Of a DNA stretch of 41,223 nt, positions 18,808 through 23,890 are shown in pieces (position 1 is the first letter of the stretch; the number at the start of each line of letters is the position of its first letter). The position numbers and the translations under genes were made by a program. The stretch is taken from contig CAIYJV010000254.1 in the NCBI GenBank assembly GCA_903926605.1, forward strand, positions 1 through 41,223. Direction: 5' to 3'. The notes under the pieces were generated by a model. The model worked only from the letters and a program-made list of their open reading frames with translations. It was not told the DNA's origin and did no database searches. The stretch comes from an uncultured Bacteroidota bacterium (GTDB lineage: Bacteria > Bacteroidota > Bacteroidia > Chitinophagales > Chitinophagaceae).

Positions 18808-19959
18808 ATGGCCGGTATTTATTTGCACATACCCTTTTGTAAACAGGCGTGCGTGTATTGCAACTTTCATTTTTCCACGTCCATGAAGCAAAAGGAGCGT
18901 GTGCTGGAGGCCATGATGCGCGAGATAGTGCTGCAGAAACCATACCTCGCCGACCATGTCGTGGACACGATCTATTTTGGTGGCGGCACTCCTTCATTGC
19001 TAAGTGCTGATGAGGTGAACCGGTTGATAGATGCACTCTATGCGAATTATAAAATAGGCGATCTGAAAGAGGTGACACTGGAGGCAAATCCGGATGACCT
19101 CGGTACCCCATACCTGAAAGCACTGCGCCATACACCCGTCAACAGATTAAGTATTGGCATACAGTCTTTTCGTGGCGAAGACCTGAAGTATATGCACCGG
19201 GCCCACGACGAGCAGCAGGCGGATTATGCCATAAAAGCATCGCAGGACGCAGGTTTCTCCAATCTTACCATAGACCTCATATATGGTATTCCGGGACTGG
19301 GCGACCAGGCATGGATAGCCAATCTGGACCGGGTGCGCGCATACAGCGTGCCGCATTTCTCGGCCTATGCCCTTACCGTGGAGCCCAGGACAGCACTGCA
19401 CTATGCGGTGACCCAAAAAAAAGCTGAAGCTACAGATCCCGGACAGGCTGCCGGCCAGTTTGAGATACTGATGGAGCGAGCCAGACAAATGGGTTTTGAT
19501 CATTACGAAATATCCAACTTCGGGCTACCGGGTTTTCATGCCATTCACAATACGAACTACTGGATGGGCATACCCTATCTGGGCCTGGGGCCGGGCGCAC
19601 ATTCTTTCAATGGAAACTCCCGCCAATGGAATGTTGCCAACAATGCGCAGTATGCCGCCGGTCTGCTGGAGCATGCAACGCTGAACATGGAACTGGAACA
19701 ACTGTCTGACACAGACACCCTGAATGAATACATCATGACCTCACTGCGCACTATGTGGGGTATGGATATGGCGAAAATAGAGCTACAATGGGGTTCAGAT
19801 GTACGTAAAAAGCTGGATCTGGCGGCGCAGGATTTTATGCTGCAAAAACAGCTCGTCTGGGAAAACGATCATTACCGGGTCACAGATAAGGGAAAGTTGT
19901 TTGCAGACCGTATCGCCTCTTACTTATTCTTTAGCGGGGAGCACGAAAAAAACCGCTAA
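18808..19959 (+). CDS. hemW: Radical SAM heme chaperone HemW
   Basis: A 383-aa radical SAM protein. The N-terminus MAGIYLHIPFCKQACVYCNF holds the iron-sulfur motif CxxxCxxC (C11, C15, C18) followed by the Asn-Phe usual for HemW. The YFGGGTPSLL motif (SAM binding) and EANPDDLG follow, as does SIGIQSF. HemW inserts heme into target proteins and was long misannotated as coproporphyrinogen III oxidase; the HemN-specific second Cys pattern is absent here. The C-terminal winged domain ends GKLFADRIASYLF. Its stop overlaps the convergent DUF4199 gene by 4 bp. Confidence 0.93.
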   Translation: MAGIYLHIPFCKQACVYCNFHFSTSMKQKERVLEAMMREIVLQKPYLADHVVDTIYFGGGTPSLLSADEVNRLIDALYANYKIGDLKEVTLEANPDDLGTPYLKALRHTPVNRLSIGIQSFRGEDLKYMHRAHDEQQADYAIKASQDAGFSNLTIDLIYGIPGLGDQAWIANLDRVRAYSVPHFSAYALTVEPRTALHYAVTQKKAEATDPGQAAGQFEILMERARQMGFDHYEISNFGLPGFHAIHNTNYWMGIPYLGLGPGAHSFNGNSRQWNVANNAQYAAGLLEHATLNMELEQLSDTDTLNEYIMTSLRTMWGMDMAKIELQWGSDVRKKLDLAAQDFMLQKQLVWENDHYRVTDKGKLFADRIASYLFFSGEHEKNR

Positions 19960-20495
19960 AACATGGGGCGCTGTTTCTTCACGATCAGACAAACCAGCAT
20001 ACCGAAAAGGCTGTCCATGACGAGGAAGCCAAAGAAACCGAGCATGGTCTTGCCGAAATGAAAAGTCTTGGCTTCGATGATCTGCTCGTCAAATTTCTTT
20101 GCGGTCGCGTCAATACTCTCATCGGGTACCTTGTGCGTTTCCATATAGGTGATCACCGAGGTTTTCATTTTCTCCAGATAATGCGGATCAAGATACTGGA
20201 AGTAAATATAGCTGTAGATGTAGTAAAGAATGCCTGCAGTGAGCAGCATGACAAATGCCGCGCCAAAAGCATCCTTAAACTCAATAAAGCCACCGTCGGC
20301 CTTTTTGATCTGCGTTACAAAAACACCGATCAGCCCCATATAAAGAATGTACACCAGTCCGCGAATGACGTTATACATGATCACATTGCTCATGAGCAGG
20401 TTGGTGACCGAGAACAGGATGATATAAACAACACCGGTGATGAGGCCGTATTTCACGCTCATTTTATTCCGTTCGGCGACTGTAATGCTTTCCAT
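19956..20495 (-). CDS. DUF4199-family membrane protein
   Basis: A 179-aa protein with four hydrophobic segments (about residues 15-34, 43-61, 75-97 and 148-168). It has the characteristic layout of DUF4199: GLITGVVYIILF, IKKADGGFIEFKDAFGAAFV, then a charged extramembrane helix and a last span. Function unknown; confined largely to Bacteroidota. Its own -7 box TATATTTG (20512-20519) overlaps the 3' end of the dihydroorotase-like gene, so it can be made independently of that gene. Confidence 0.82.
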   Translation of the reverse strand: MESITVAERNKMSVKYGLITGVVYIILFSVTNLLMSNVIMYNVIRGLVYILYMGLIGVFVTQIKKADGGFIEFKDAFGAAFVMLLTAGILYYIYSYIYFQYLDPHYLEKMKTSVITYMETHKVPDESIDATAKKFDEQIIEAKTFHFGKTMLGFFGFLVMDSLFGMLVCLIVKKQRPMF

Positions 20496-20502
20496 AAAAA
20501 AA

Positions 20503-21771
20503 TTAATTGTTCAAATATAGTTGATTGTTGTTGACGATACCCAGAACCCTGCCCGGAAGCATCGCCCCGATAAAGGGGTTGTTCCTGCTGGCCGATCTGA
20601 CCTTTGCATCGGTGAGCGTCGTAGTCCCGTTAGTGGTGAACATGGTTAGTCTGGCTTTCTGTCCTTCGGCAATGATGGGCTGGGTCAGTCCGAAGATATC
20701 GCGGGGTATCAGTGTCATTGCTTCCACCAGCCTGTCTGCAGACACCACTTCCTTTACCGCGTTCCAGGCCACATTGAATGCGATCTCCTGCAATGCCATA
20801 CCATTGGATGCATATTCAAACTCCCGGGTTTTTGCGTCCCACTCGTGTGGTTGGTGATGAGATGCGATACAATCAATTGTGCCATTATTCAATCCTTCTA
20901 TCAGCGCCAGCCGGTCGGATTCTGCTCGTAACGGAGGGTTTACCTTGTATACGCTGTCGTAACCGCGCAACGATTCTTCGGTGAGTGCCAAATGGTATGG
21001 CGTAACCGAACAGGAGACCTGCAGGCCTTCGGCCTTTGCTTTACGTATCATTTCAACCGCTCCCGCTGTGCTGATCCCGGTAATGTGCAATCGGGAACCG
21101 GTATAGCGAAGCAACTCCAGATCGCGGTATACCATCATGGTCTCGGCAATGGCGGGAAGCCCCGGCATACCCAGTTGGGTAGACAGCAGTCCTTCGTTCA
21201 TCAGCCCTCCCGACGAAAGCGACGCATCGTTGGGCATTTGTAGTATCACACCGTTAAAGGCACGCACATATTCCAGCGCCTTGAGCATAAGTCCGGAATT
21301 CTGTATCGGTTTGCGACCATCCGTAAACGCTATGGCACCGCAGCGGCGCATATCCAGCATTTCGGCCAGGTCCTTGCCCTCGGCCTGCTGCGTGGCGCAA
21401 CCCAGCGGATGCAGGTTTACAATATTTCCTCTCGATTTTGCAGTCACAGATTCTACCATTGCGCTGGTGCCCAGAACCGGATTGGTATTGGGCATCAGGA
21501 ATACATCGGTAAAACCACCCGCGGCGGCTGCCTTCAAACCCGTGTTTATGGTTTCTTTATGTTCGTAACCGGGTTCCGCATAATCGGCAAAAACGTCTAC
21601 CCATCCGGGGCTCACCATAAGGCCGTCTGCATGAACAACCGTGGTATTTCCGGGATCGCTGAAATCTCCCGTCTGGGTAATATTGCCGTTTTCTACTAAG
21701 ATATCGGAAACTTTACCGTGCAGCGGGGATTCGGGGTCTATGATCGTAGCCTTGCTGATATAAATATTCAT
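20503..21771 (-). CDS. Dihydroorotase homologue lacking metal ligands (PyrC-like, probably non-catalytic)
   Basis: A 422-aa amidohydrolase-fold protein starting MNIYISKATIIDPESPLHGK; the in-frame ATG at 21819 lies in unconserved sequence. Alignment by eye to class I dihydroorotases is clear (PGWVDV...EPGYEHKETI, FTDVFLMPNTNPV, GLMNEG, VTPYHLALTEESL, QPHEWDAKTREFEYAS). However, the HxH metal site reads F61-A-D63, the substrate Arg is A65, the HCED block is MPND (179-182), PHH is PYH (Y259) and the catalytic Asp of TDHAPH is H305. D151 remains. It therefore probably cannot hydrolyse dihydroorotate. Non-catalytic homologues act as structural partners of aspartate transcarbamoylase in some bacteria; that role here is inference. 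Confidence 0.85.
   Translation of the reverse strand: MNIYISKATIIDPESPLHGKVSDILVENGNITQTGDFSDPGNTTVVHADGLMVSPGWVDVFADYAEPGYEHKETINTGLKAAAAGGFTDVFLMPNTNPVLGTSAMVESVTAKSRGNIVNLHPLGCATQQAEGKDLAEMLDMRRCGAIAFTDGRKPIQNSGLMLKALEYVRAFNGVILQMPNDASLSSGGLMNEGLLSTQLGMPGLPAIAETMMVYRDLELLRYTGSRLHITGISTAGAVEMIRKAKAEGLQVSCSVTPYHLALTEESLRGYDSVYKVNPPLRAESDRLALIEGLNNGTIDCIASHHQPHEWDAKTREFEYASNGMALQEIAFNVAWNAVKEVVSADRLVEAMTLIPRDIFGLTQPIIAEGQKARLTMFTTNGTTTLTDAKVRSASRNNPFIGAMLPGRVLGIVNNNQLYLNN
20512..20519 (-). promoter_or_regulatory. -7 box TATATTTG of the DUF4199 gene
   Basis: Exact match on the minus strand, 16 nt before the ATG at 20495, inside the last codons of the upstream gene. Confidence 0.55.
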
Positions 21772-21874: not shown

Positions 21875-23890
21875 TCAGACCTGTTTCCGTGCCAGTAGCC
21901 AGGTTTCAGCCATAAGCATCAGCACGCCAAACAATACGCATATCTTCCAGATGGGAAAACCACCCTGGTTGCCAACTGCCGGGAGTCGTGCTGCGTCTGC
22001 CGGGTCTGCCCAGAATACACCGGGCTGCTTCCATTGGTTTTTCAGTTCGGCTATATCGCGGTATTCCAGTTTGGCTTCATTTCTGTCTCCGTTCAGCGCG
22101 ATCATTGTTGTGTCTCCGGCATGCGCTACCAGTGTATAAAATCCCGGTGTCTGAACCACCTGATCGGGAAACAATTCTACCCCCGCCCCAGCAGCACGCT
22201 GCGGTGGTACCATGTCGGTGGCTCCCTGGTAAAGGTGAACCACATCGCGACCCGCACCGGCCATAAGCGGCAAGTACACTGCCTGATGTTGTCCCGCCGT
22301 GAGTGCATACACGCTGCTGCTGCCAGATTGCATGGCCATCTGGTAAAGAAAGGGTGCGAAGAAGTAGCTTCCGGGGAAATTGCCCGCCGACAAGTCTGCG
22401 GACGTGGCGCAGAGGTATAGGTTGCCCCTGCCCGGCGTGTATCGCGCCAGGAACGGATCGCCGTTGCGGAAACTGAGCACGGATTGCTGGTTGGCGCTGA
22501 TGCCGGCGGTTATCACATAGTGCCAGTTGGCTACCGGCAACTGCACGTTTTCCGGTATTTTTTCAAATAGTTCTTTTACAAGGTCGCTTCCCTGTTGAAT
22601 GCCTGCCACCACCTGCACAGCTGTATCTACTGCCGTAAGGCGGATATCGCCTGCTTTTGACAGGCCCTCATTTATCTGGCTCATGTTGGCTGTCCTGCCG
22701 GGGAACACACAAATGGTCTGACCTGCCTGTAACGCCTCGTTGATCTTTCCACCCAGAGTAGCGTCTATCCCGGTCACACCGTCCAGTATAATGAGGTTGT
22801 AGTCTTTCCATGCATCGCTAACCGTACCTGCCTGATTGATCCTGAATCCATTGTAGGCGCGAAAGGCAGCCTGCACAAATGGGTTGGGCCTGCCTTCATT
22901 TACAACCAGCACTGAAAGATTGGGAGCGGTGCGGGCAGTAATACGGAAAGTGTCGTCGAATGGCAATGTGGCATCGTCTGCCTCCAGTTCCATTTTCTGC
23001 CAGCGGCCGTCGTTCACGGAAAAACTGAGTGTATCGGTGCTTTCGTTTTTTGCGTTGAAGGACAGGGTGGCCACGCTCTTCACTTGCCCGTTTATGATAA
23101 GGCGCACGGTAGGCTGCTCTTTTAAGGGTTTACCTGCGCTGTGGGCACGCAGCACCACATTGTTGGTTTTACCGGCTACAAGTACAGGGTTGGTCAGGTA
23201 AGCAGTGTCTATGGCAATGTCGCTCGGTTCGTCTCCCCTCACGGGCATGGCATAAAACAATACATGCTTCATAGACGCATCGTCTGGCAGGTCGGGGAAT
23301 GCGTTTTGCTGAAAATCAGAGTAGTAGAACAGGGCCACGTCGCCGGGCAATTGTTCCGGACCCAGACTGTGCAACACAGACAATACCTGGCTCACCGTTT
23401 TAGACCCTGAAGTACAATTGATCTGCGTGAGTGCCTGTATGGCTTTTTCTGCGGGTACCGGATAATAGTGCTCCGGTTTGTCATTGGTGAGTATGAGGAA
23501 GCGGCTACCGGGTGCCGATCTTCTTACCTGTGCTATTGCACTTTCCCTCGCCACATCAAGCAGGGTGCGGGCGCCATTGCGCACAGACATACTGTTAGAA
23601 TTGTCTATATAGATCACCCGCAGCGCAGATTCGTTCTGGCTGTGGTTACTGCTGCTGAAGAAGGGCTGCGCAAACGCCAGTATCAGCGACAGCAAAAAAA
23701 GCAATCTGGCTGCCAGCAGCCACTTGTAGCGCACCTGGCTCTGCTTGCGGCTGTGAAGCTGAATATTCCTTAGGAAACGGGTATGCGGGAACATTACCGT
23801 TTTGTACTTCCGCAGGTTGAACAGATGTATCAGTACCGGTATTGCCAGAGCAACCGCCGACCAAAGGAATAATGGGTACAAAAAACTCAC
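21875..23890 (-). CDS. BatA-domain membrane protein with VWA-like region
   Basis: A 671-aa protein. The N-terminus SFLYPLFLWSAVALAIPVLI, then HLFNLRKYKTVMFPHTRFLR, is the BatA/aerotolerance N-terminal domain: two membrane spans (about 5-22, 57-77) bracketing a basic loop. A von Willebrand A-like region follows (YIDNSNSMS ... ARTLLDVARESA), then long periplasmic beta domains and a final span (about 648-666) before LLARKQV. The start is GTG at 23890, 4 nt after an exact -7 box. No BatB/C/D or MoxR genes adjoin it, so this is the free-standing type common in Bacteroidota. Function unknown. Confidence 0.85.
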   Translation of the reverse strand: MSFLYPLFLWSAVALAIPVLIHLFNLRKYKTVMFPHTRFLRNIQLHSRKQSQVRYKWLLAARLLFLLSLILAFAQPFFSSSNHSQNESALRVIYIDNSNSMSVRNGARTLLDVARESAIAQVRRSAPGSRFLILTNDKPEHYYPVPAEKAIQALTQINCTSGSKTVSQVLSVLHSLGPEQLPGDVALFYYSDFQQNAFPDLPDDASMKHVLFYAMPVRGDEPSDIAIDTAYLTNPVLVAGKTNNVVLRAHSAGKPLKEQPTVRLIINGQVKSVATLSFNAKNESTDTLSFSVNDGRWQKMELEADDATLPFDDTFRITARTAPNLSVLVVNEGRPNPFVQAAFRAYNGFRINQAGTVSDAWKDYNLIILDGVTGIDATLGGKINEALQAGQTICVFPGRTANMSQINEGLSKAGDIRLTAVDTAVQVVAGIQQGSDLVKELFEKIPENVQLPVANWHYVITAGISANQQSVLSFRNGDPFLARYTPGRGNLYLCATSADLSAGNFPGSYFFAPFLYQMAMQSGSSSVYALTAGQHQAVYLPLMAGAGRDVVHLYQGATDMVPPQRAAGAGVELFPDQVVQTPGFYTLVAHAGDTTMIALNGDRNEAKLEYRDIAELKNQWKQPGVFWADPADAARLPAVGNQGGFPIWKICVLFGVLMLMAETWLLARKQV

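What the first reader, a model, noticed from the sequence alone, without database searches (positions are those of the whole stretch)
20503..21771. Dihydroorotase homologue with every metal-binding histidine replaced
The fold and many surrounding motifs are kept, yet HxH is F-A-D, the substrate Arg is Ala, HCED is MPND, PHH is PYH and the catalytic Asp of TDHAPH is His. Such complete loss with preserved framework implies selection for a non-catalytic role, such as scaffolding aspartate transcarbamoylase or a new ligand-binding function. Automatic annotation would call it an active dihydroorotase.
Basis: partly seen in the sequence, partly recalled or inferred. Interest (0 to 1): 0.6.

Follow-up and report, generated by a model that had tools for sequence, protein, structure and literature searches.

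The report
Inactive dihydroorotase kept as scaffold
This gene is labelled as an enzyme of pyrimidine synthesis, but across most of its class of bacteria the enzyme's working parts have been lost while the protein is kept, most likely as a structural partner of the preceding enzyme, while a second dihydroorotase in the same genome probably does the chemistry.

Summary
The gene is on the minus strand (20503-21771, 422 aa). It is a type-I dihydroorotase homologue (TIGR00857, 338.6 bits, cut-off 279.05) in which all four metal-binding histidines (A. aeolicus His61, 63, 180, 232) are F, D, M, G and catalytic Asp305 is His; Asp153 is kept. The genome has a second dihydroorotase (PRK09236, 669 bits) and one PyrB.

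It is a class-wide family. Of 83 aligned class sequences 82 keep at most 4 of the 6 residues; outside the class 32 of 36 keep all six. The depleted class sequences form one clade (99/97), though single residues were lost repeatedly. dN/dS is 0.03-0.09: not a relic.

Best explanation: a non-catalytic subunit of aspartate transcarbamoylase, as in Pseudomonas class A2. Outside the class, ligand-complete relatives lie directly behind pyrB in 10 of 32 loci; none of 7 PyrI-bearing class genomes has it; a genome with E. coli-type PyrC keeps a depleted copy. No complex was shown.

Serious rival: a BatA-like membrane-protein gene is directly upstream in 64 of 89 class genomes.

The parts
20503..21771 (-). 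pseudo-dihydroorotase (pDHO), 422 aa, the gene of the finding
   Evidence: AlphaFold2 model pLDDT 87.1, best solved matches 4bjh_A and 3d6n_A, Z 54.5 and 54.1
21583..21591 (-). former HxH metal motif, now F61-A62-D63
21577..21579 (-). former substrate Arg, now A65
21319..21321 (-). D151, equivalent of alpha-site ligand Asp153, retained
21235..21237 (-). former His180, now M179 (HCED is MPND)
21076..21078 (-). former His232, now G232
20857..20859 (-). former catalytic Asp305, now H305
21875..23890 (-). BatA-like membrane protein (PF07584, TIGR02226; sub-threshold VWA_2), directly upstream on the same strand
   Evidence: linkage in 64 of 89 class genomes, 0 of 36 out-of-class loci; model pLDDT 79.1
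19956..20495 (-). DUF4199 membrane protein, 7 bases downstream on the same strand; linkage only local (37 of 80 named close relatives; 2 of 82 class loci)

Best explanation
The protein is a catalytically dead type-I dihydroorotase (pDHO) kept as a structural subunit of aspartate transcarbamoylase (PyrB), like PyrC' of Pseudomonas class A2 enzymes. Proposed mechanism: pDHO dimers hold PyrB trimers in an assembly of the kind seen in the Aquifex DHO-ATC dodecamer and so stabilise the PyrB trimer. Carbamoyl-aspartate is cyclised by the second, separately encoded dihydroorotase (PyrC2). Shown here: depletion of the ligands, one clade of depleted class sequences, purifying selection among close relatives, a PyrC2 and a single PyrB in the genome, best fold match to the DHO chain of the DHO-ATC complex, and a co-occurrence pattern with PyrB type. 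Inferred: the physical complex, its stoichiometry, the lack of activity, and that PyrC2 is the working enzyme.
For: 1) Ancestry: in out-of-class relatives the ligand-complete homologue is directly behind pyrB in 10 of 32 fetched loci, and those PyrBs are 57-61% identical to the window's PyrB. In the PyrB tree the 29 rows labelled pDHO fall in one cluster (SH-aLRT 90, not starred) that joins those operon PyrBs (80), while the 7 PyrI-partnered PyrBs lie apart (100, with G232 and an extra PyrB of G287). 2) Exclusion: of 198 class genomes 168 have the homologue (E<=1e-35) and 7 have PyrI over cut-off, with no overlap (an eighth PyrI match, 25.8 bits in G029, is far under cut-off). G232 and G012 also have no pDHO by three searches, and PyrBs of 32% and 43% identity outside the cluster. 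3) 167 of the 168 have PyrB. 4) Where PyrC2 is missing, the old enzyme was not restored in G227: it has an E. coli-type PyrC (459.9 bits) and a homologue lacking His61, His180 and His232 (3 of 6 residues kept). G072 instead has a ligand-complete copy directly behind a pyrB and outside the class clade. 5) A second depleted lineage (G001, G006, G016) is directly behind pyrB in 3 of 3. 6) Fold: 4bjh_A and 3d6n_A head 1000 chains, tied within 1 Z with Thermus 2z00. 7) PyrC2 catalytic residues are invariant in 41 of 41, apart from the first His (Gln in 36). 8) Precedent: P. aeruginosa pDHO is inactive yet needed for ATCase activity (PMC7053772, abstract, introduction and discussion read).
Against: The gene is not next to pyrB in any fetched class locus except G072, whose copy is ligand-complete; it is linked to a BatA-like gene instead. 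22 of 32 out-of-class active loci showed no pyrB in the fetched stretch (flanks 1.5-5 kb). Branch rates do not single out PyrB: partial Spearman pDHO-PyrB 0.44, pDHO-PyrC2 0.59. Loops of low model confidence, which I took as loops A-C, are not unusually conserved (percentiles 52, 62, 54). Four genomes of family f78 have a PyrB (37-49% identity) and no detectable pDHO. The f71 family has a very diverged pDHO with PyrBs outside the main cluster on long branches. G163 has a pDHO-like gene and no PyrB found; G284 likewise lacks PyrB. G168 and G316 (97-98% complete) have a depleted homologue and no other dihydroorotase that I found; the two extra G168 hits are an allantoinase and a hydantoinase by model. 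Depletion is graded: G188 keeps the whole alpha site and Asp305 and could still be active. The PyrI exclusion rests on few independent events.
Confidence: 0.67

Rival explanations
1. pDHO now works with the BatA-like membrane protein encoded directly upstream (N-terminal double transmembrane segment, probable VWA domain), in a cell-envelope or regulatory role, with or without PyrB.
For: BatA-like gene directly upstream on the same strand in 64 of 89 class genomes with a fetched locus and 59 of 80 named close relatives, 0 of 36 out-of-class loci. Median gap between the stop-delimited frames is -2 bases. The linkage persists where pDHO is extremely diverged (G172, G240) and in G163, where no PyrB was found.
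Against: 25 of 89 class genomes do not show the linkage, among them six f1 relatives and four f71 genomes fetched with wide flanks. Loss of pDHO goes with change of PyrB type. Linkage can be operon inertia. Whether PyrI-bearing genomes keep the BatA-like gene was not tested.
Confidence: 0.15
2. The pocket has been rebuilt into a new metal- or ligand-binding site in the window's own family (D63, D151, H305).
For: In 81 close relatives, window included, D63 is kept in 76, D151 in 81, G232 in 80, H305 in 79; the D63/H305 pair occurs in 74.
Against: These are close relatives (mean identity 60%), the best 80 of a pattern scan; D63, D151, G232 and H305 rank at the 64th, 92nd, 85th and 83rd conservation percentile. 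At class level positions 61 and 63 are at the 9th and 6th percentile, so any such site is local and cannot explain class-wide retention.
Confidence: 0.08
3. It is still an active dihydroorotase with unusual chemistry.
For: PMC2770081 (passages read) says that a Zur-linked PyrC paralogue lacking the zinc residues is active; A. aeolicus H180A/H232A stays active (PMC3880350, passages). G168 and G316 have no other dihydroorotase that I found. One class member, G188, keeps the whole alpha site and Asp305.
Against: In the window both alpha-site histidines and the catalytic Asp are gone as well, and positions 61 and 63 drift freely across the class. 161 of the 168 genomes with the homologue also have PyrC2.
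Confidence: 0.05
4. A decaying relic without function.
For: Broken copies exist: two internal stops in G190, two frames in G199.
Against: dN/dS 0.027-0.088 in 11 pairs (a 12th gave no value); no internal stop in 80 named close relatives; present in 168 of 198 class genomes.
Confidence: 0.02

Closest known systems
Pseudo-dihydroorotase PyrC' (pDHO) of class A2 aspartate transcarbamoylase, Pseudomonas
   Same: Inactive type-I DHO homologue of about 45 kDa; a separate dihydroorotase in the genome; the proposed partner is PyrB (PMC7053772).
   Different: Here the gene is not beside pyrB (in Pseudomonas it is, by recall) but behind a BatA-like gene, and the depleted proteins form one clade of a bacterial class. 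The Pseudomonas sequence itself was not compared; the model PRK07627 (that it is the Pseudomonas type is recalled) scores 307 bits, below its 442 cut-off. Complex formation is not shown.
Aquifex aeolicus DHO of the class A1 DHO-ATC dodecamer (3d6n, 4bjh)
   Same: Same fold over the full length, Z 54.1-54.5, 33-34% identity.
   Different: Aquifex DHO has His61, His63, Asp153, His180, His232 and Asp305 and is active in the complex.
Pseudo-DHO domain of fungal CAD-like proteins (ura2)
   Same: Inactive DHO domain retained beside ATCase (PMC7053772 introduction).
   Different: Fused polypeptide of fungi; not compared here.
PRK09236-type dihydroorotase (PyrC2 of the same genome; solved relative 2gwn)
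   Same: Also over the TIGR00857 cut-off (299 bits).
   Different: Its catalytic residues are invariant in 41 of 41, though Gln replaces the first His in 36 of 41; only 26.5% identical to pDHO.

Membership tests
class A2 ATCase pseudo-DHO (PyrC') | homologous to type-I dihydroorotase over its length | tested here: met
class A2 ATCase pseudo-DHO (PyrC') | lacks zinc ligands and substrate residues | tested here: met
   the equivalents of Asp153 and the substrate Asn are retained
class A2 ATCase pseudo-DHO (PyrC') | separate functional dihydroorotase in the genome | tested here: met
   PyrC2 on contig C219, PRK09236 equivalog over cut-off; its activity is inferred
class A2 ATCase pseudo-DHO (PyrC') | forms a dodecamer with PyrB and is needed for ATCase activity | not testable with these tools
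   no complex prediction offered; genomic association only
class A2 ATCase pseudo-DHO (PyrC') | specific kinship with the Pseudomonas PyrC' lineage | not tested
   no Pseudomonas sequence was fetched or put in the trees
active type-I dihydroorotase (TIGR00857) | family model over cut-off | tested here: met
   338.6 bits, cut-off 279.05
active type-I dihydroorotase (TIGR00857) | alpha-site His61/His63/Asp153 and catalytic Asp305 | tested here: not met
   F61, D63, D151, H305

The most novel reading that the evidence does not exclude
In this class the depleted dihydroorotase came to lie behind a BatA-like VWA membrane protein instead of behind pyrB, at about the time its active site decayed (both inferred), and it now links aspartate transcarbamoylase, or some other process, to that membrane protein: a pyrimidine pseudoenzyme acting at the envelope.
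Probability: 0.13. Interest if true: 0.75.

Novelty: new variant of a known kind. Interest (0 to 1): 0.5.

Why it matters
If true, most members of a large bacterial class carry a protein annotated as dihydroorotase that is not one, and their aspartate transcarbamoylase would be a two-subunit enzyme of a type described, in the papers I read, from Pseudomonas and fungi. Pathway models, essentiality calls and inhibitor work that count two dihydroorotases in these bacteria would be wrong. The class-wide linkage to a BatA-like membrane protein gives a directly testable second role.

Tried and rejected
Relic: rejected by dN/dS 0.027-0.088 in the 11 pairs with a value. Only dihydroorotase of the genome: rejected. 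Class-wide new ligand site: not supported, as positions 61 and 63 drift. Coupled evolution of pDHO and PyrB: inconclusive, PyrC2 correlates as well or better (41 genomes, one topology from the three genes joined). Loop conservation as an interface sign: no clear signal; the loop limits were mine, from low pLDDT, because the passages of PMC3880350 that I saw give none. A single loss event for every residue: withdrawn after a recheck, since single residues need 4 to 12 changes on the tree; what holds is one clade of depleted sequences. Absence of pDHO in f71 and f58-g108 genomes at E<=1e-35 proved false: diverged copies exist, so I took them off the list of losses; G301 has a pDHO fragment. G241, G267 and G282 are 67-81% complete and were left out of the list; the extra hit of G241 is a PyrC2-type protein and that of G267 is unclassified. 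The BatA-like protein had no solved sequence relative at E<=1; its model was not searched by fold. Literature: eight searches, seen as listings only except for the papers named in the text; none listed a Bacteroidota pseudo-dihydroorotase. Subscription papers are mostly not held.

Full report
What is there. The gene is a 422-codon frame on the minus strand, 21771 to 20503. It matches TIGR00857 (dihydroorotase, multifunctional type) at 338.6 bits over a cut-off of 279.05; none of the equivalog models among the 25 families shown (of 35) reaches its own cut-off. The nearest solved sequences are chains named dihydroorotase, including that of Aquifex aeolicus. The AlphaFold2 model (mean pLDDT 87.1) matches best the DHO chain of the Aquifex DHO-ATC complex, 4bjh_A (Z 54.5) and 3d6n_A (Z 54.1); Thermus 2z00 (53.8) is tied with them.

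The active site. With ligands as given for A. aeolicus in passages of PMC3880350, His61, His63, His180 and His232 are F61, D63, M179 and G232; catalytic Asp305 is H305; the substrate Arg is A65; Asp153 is kept as D151. Not everything is lost: D151, N95 and H309 remain.

It is a family, not a freak. Of 148 genomes of the phylum, 136 have a relative at E<=1e-20; of 198 of the window's class, 168 at E<=1e-35. I aligned 83 class sequences (window included; four are partial or broken) and 36 from outside the class, out of 101 out-of-class genomes with a match. The sequences are those whose loci the searches returned or that I chose. In the class the number of the six ligand and catalytic residues kept is 0 in 2, 1 in 23, 2 in 31, 3 in 20, 4 in 6 and 6 in 1; outside it is 6 in 32 of 36. 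The one complete class copy, G072, lies outside the class clade and directly behind its own pyrB. One more class member, G188, keeps the alpha site and Asp305 and lacks only the beta-site histidines; A. aeolicus DHO without those two is reported active (PMC3880350, passages), so G188 may be active.

Origin. In a tree built without the active-site columns, 53 depleted class sequences form one clade (SH-aLRT 95). In a careful tree of 63 rows, with ten long-branched rows left out and 30 of the remaining 44 class rows used, support is 99/97, and 98% of 200 bootstrap trees have it. Depletion therefore began once within this sample, from ligand-complete relatives, but single residues went repeatedly: the fewest changes per residue on the first tree are 4 (His232), 5 (His61), 6 (His63), 6 (Asp153), 9 (Asp305) and 12 (His180). 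A separate depleted lineage (G001, G006, G016) exists elsewhere in the phylum.

Selection. Among named close relatives dN/dS is 0.027-0.088 in 11 non-overlapping pairs; a twelfth gave no value. Across 78 class sequences the old metal positions 61 and 63 fall to the 9th and 6th conservation percentile, from the 98th and 99th in 32 active relatives, while framework residues such as G56, D59, P67, G68, H306 and P308 stay among the most conserved. Within the window's own family the picture differs: among 81 sequences D63 is kept in 76, D151 in 81, G232 in 80 and H305 in 79. That set was gathered with two sequence patterns and cut to the best 80, so it is biased to similar sequences; residues 254-261 lie in one of the patterns.

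The rest of the pathway in this genome. The genome (3.97 Mb, 426 contigs, 97% complete) has a second TIGR00857 protein on contig C219, a PRK09236 dihydroorotase by its equivalog model (669 bits, cut-off 535), nearest to the solved 2gwn. I call it PyrC2. Its other catalytic residues are invariant in 41 of 41 genomes compared; the first His of HxH is Gln in 36 and His in 5; 2gwn has the same Gln. A third, weak TIGR00857 match (27.9 bits, C384) is far under cut-off. One PyrB lies on C332 next to a pyrR gene (169 bits, cut-off 138).

Who keeps the pseudo-enzyme. Of 198 class genomes 168 have it (G072's complete copy included), 191 have PyrB (E<=1e-40), 183 have PyrC2 (E<=1e-60) and 7 have PyrI over cut-off. 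Cross-counted: 167 of the 168 have PyrB, 161 have PyrC2, none of the 168 has PyrI over cut-off. Of the 24 with PyrB but no strict hit, 8 proved to hold a very diverged or partial copy (G172, G240, G185, G219, G249, G276, G303, G301), 3 are 67-81% complete (G241, G267, G282), and 13 remain: the 7 with PyrI, then G232 and G012 (these nine PyrBs are 32-43% identical to the window's and lie outside its cluster), and four of family f78 (one of them 82% complete) with PyrBs at 37-49%. The PyrBs of the 29 tree rows labelled pDHO fall in one cluster (SH-aLRT 90) that joins the PyrBs of operons with active DHO at 80; neither support is starred, and the f71 and f78 PyrBs sit on long branches. In out-of-class loci pyrB is directly upstream of the active dho in 10 of 32, and in 3 of 4 depleted ones; in the other 22 active loci no pyrB was seen in the fetched stretch.

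Natural controls. G227 lacks PyrC2 but has an E. coli-type PyrC (459.9 bits), and its homologue still lacks His61, His180 and His232. In the 7 PyrI-bearing genomes and in G232 and G012, PyrC2 is the only TIGR00857 match at E<=1e-12, which supports PyrC2 as the working enzyme; E. coli-type PyrC was not searched for there. Unfavourable: G168 and G316 have the depleted protein, no PyrC2 and no E. coli-type PyrC over cut-off; the two extra G168 hits are an allantoinase and a hydantoinase by model. G167, G226 and G321 also lack PyrC2 but are 60-91% complete.

Neighbourhood. The gene lies 103 bases behind a BatA-like gene and 7 bases ahead of a DUF4199 gene, all on one strand. The BatA-like gene is directly upstream in 64 of 89 class genomes with a fetched locus, in 59 of 80 named close relatives, and in 0 of 36 out-of-class loci. 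The 89 are not a random draw, and some loci have short flanks. The protein has the BatA N-terminal domain, a sub-threshold VWA match and a model of pLDDT 79.1. This linkage is the strongest point for a rival role. I could not test whether PyrI-bearing genomes keep that gene.

Tests that did not help. Branch rates of pDHO correlate with PyrC2 (partial Spearman 0.59) at least as well as with PyrB (0.44), so they do not point to one partner. Three loops of low model confidence, which I took to be the loops that order on ATC binding in Aquifex, are not specially conserved.

How it most likely works. By analogy with P. aeruginosa, where an inactive pDHO is required for ATCase to trimerise and be active (PMC7053772: abstract, introduction and discussion read), I infer that this pDHO is the non-catalytic subunit of a PyrB holoenzyme, and that PyrC2 took over catalysis before or while the ligands were lost. 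The complex itself is not shown.

Organism. The nearest named relatives are Chitinophagaceae-type genomes (Flavipsychrobacter, Taibaiella and unnamed Bacteroidetes bins; up to 65% identity over the full length). That the class is Bacteroidia is inferred; the tool gives only kinship codes.

Novelty. Pseudo-dihydroorotases are known from Pseudomonas and fungi. Eight searches of the paper library, seen as listings, showed no description of this class-wide family or of the BatA linkage. I rate it a new variant of a known kind.

Noticed in passing
window 21875-23890; loci: A BatA-like membrane protein gene is directly upstream of the pseudo-dihydroorotase in 64 of 89 class genomes and in 0 of 36 out-of-class loci.
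   Followed up: partly
L337 (G227:C69:11855-12871): A class member without PyrC2 has an E. coli-type PyrC (TIGR00856, 459.9 bits) and still carries a ligand-depleted homologue.
   Followed up: yes
L097 (G188:C88:15288-16544): The only class-clade copy that keeps the whole alpha metal site and Asp305; possibly still active.
   Followed up: no
L046, L047, L048 (G016, G006, G001): A second, separate ligand-depleted dihydroorotase lineage directly behind pyrB in another class of the phylum.
   Followed up: partly
L340-L346 (G240, G172, G219, G276, G303, G249, G185): Extremely diverged pseudo-dihydroorotases, 25-30% identical to the nearest others, most in open frames of 381-424 residues.
   Followed up: partly
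G182, G217, G247 (family f68): Three genomes 91-99% complete without PyrB, PyrC2 or pseudo-dihydroorotase in these searches; possibly pyrimidine auxotrophs.
   Followed up: no
L195 (G190), L194 and L196 (G199): Pseudo-dihydroorotase gene with two internal stops, and in two frames, respectively; assembly error or decay.
   Followed up: no
L268, L288: Records titled Azovibrio restrictus and Phycisphaerales carry this Bacteroidota-type gene at 59% and 55% identity; the bins are probably mislabelled or contaminated.
   Followed up: no
L002 1444-2775: PyrC2 has Gln for the first His of HxH in 36 of 41 genomes, as in solved 2gwn, and yet seems to be the working enzyme.
   Followed up: partly
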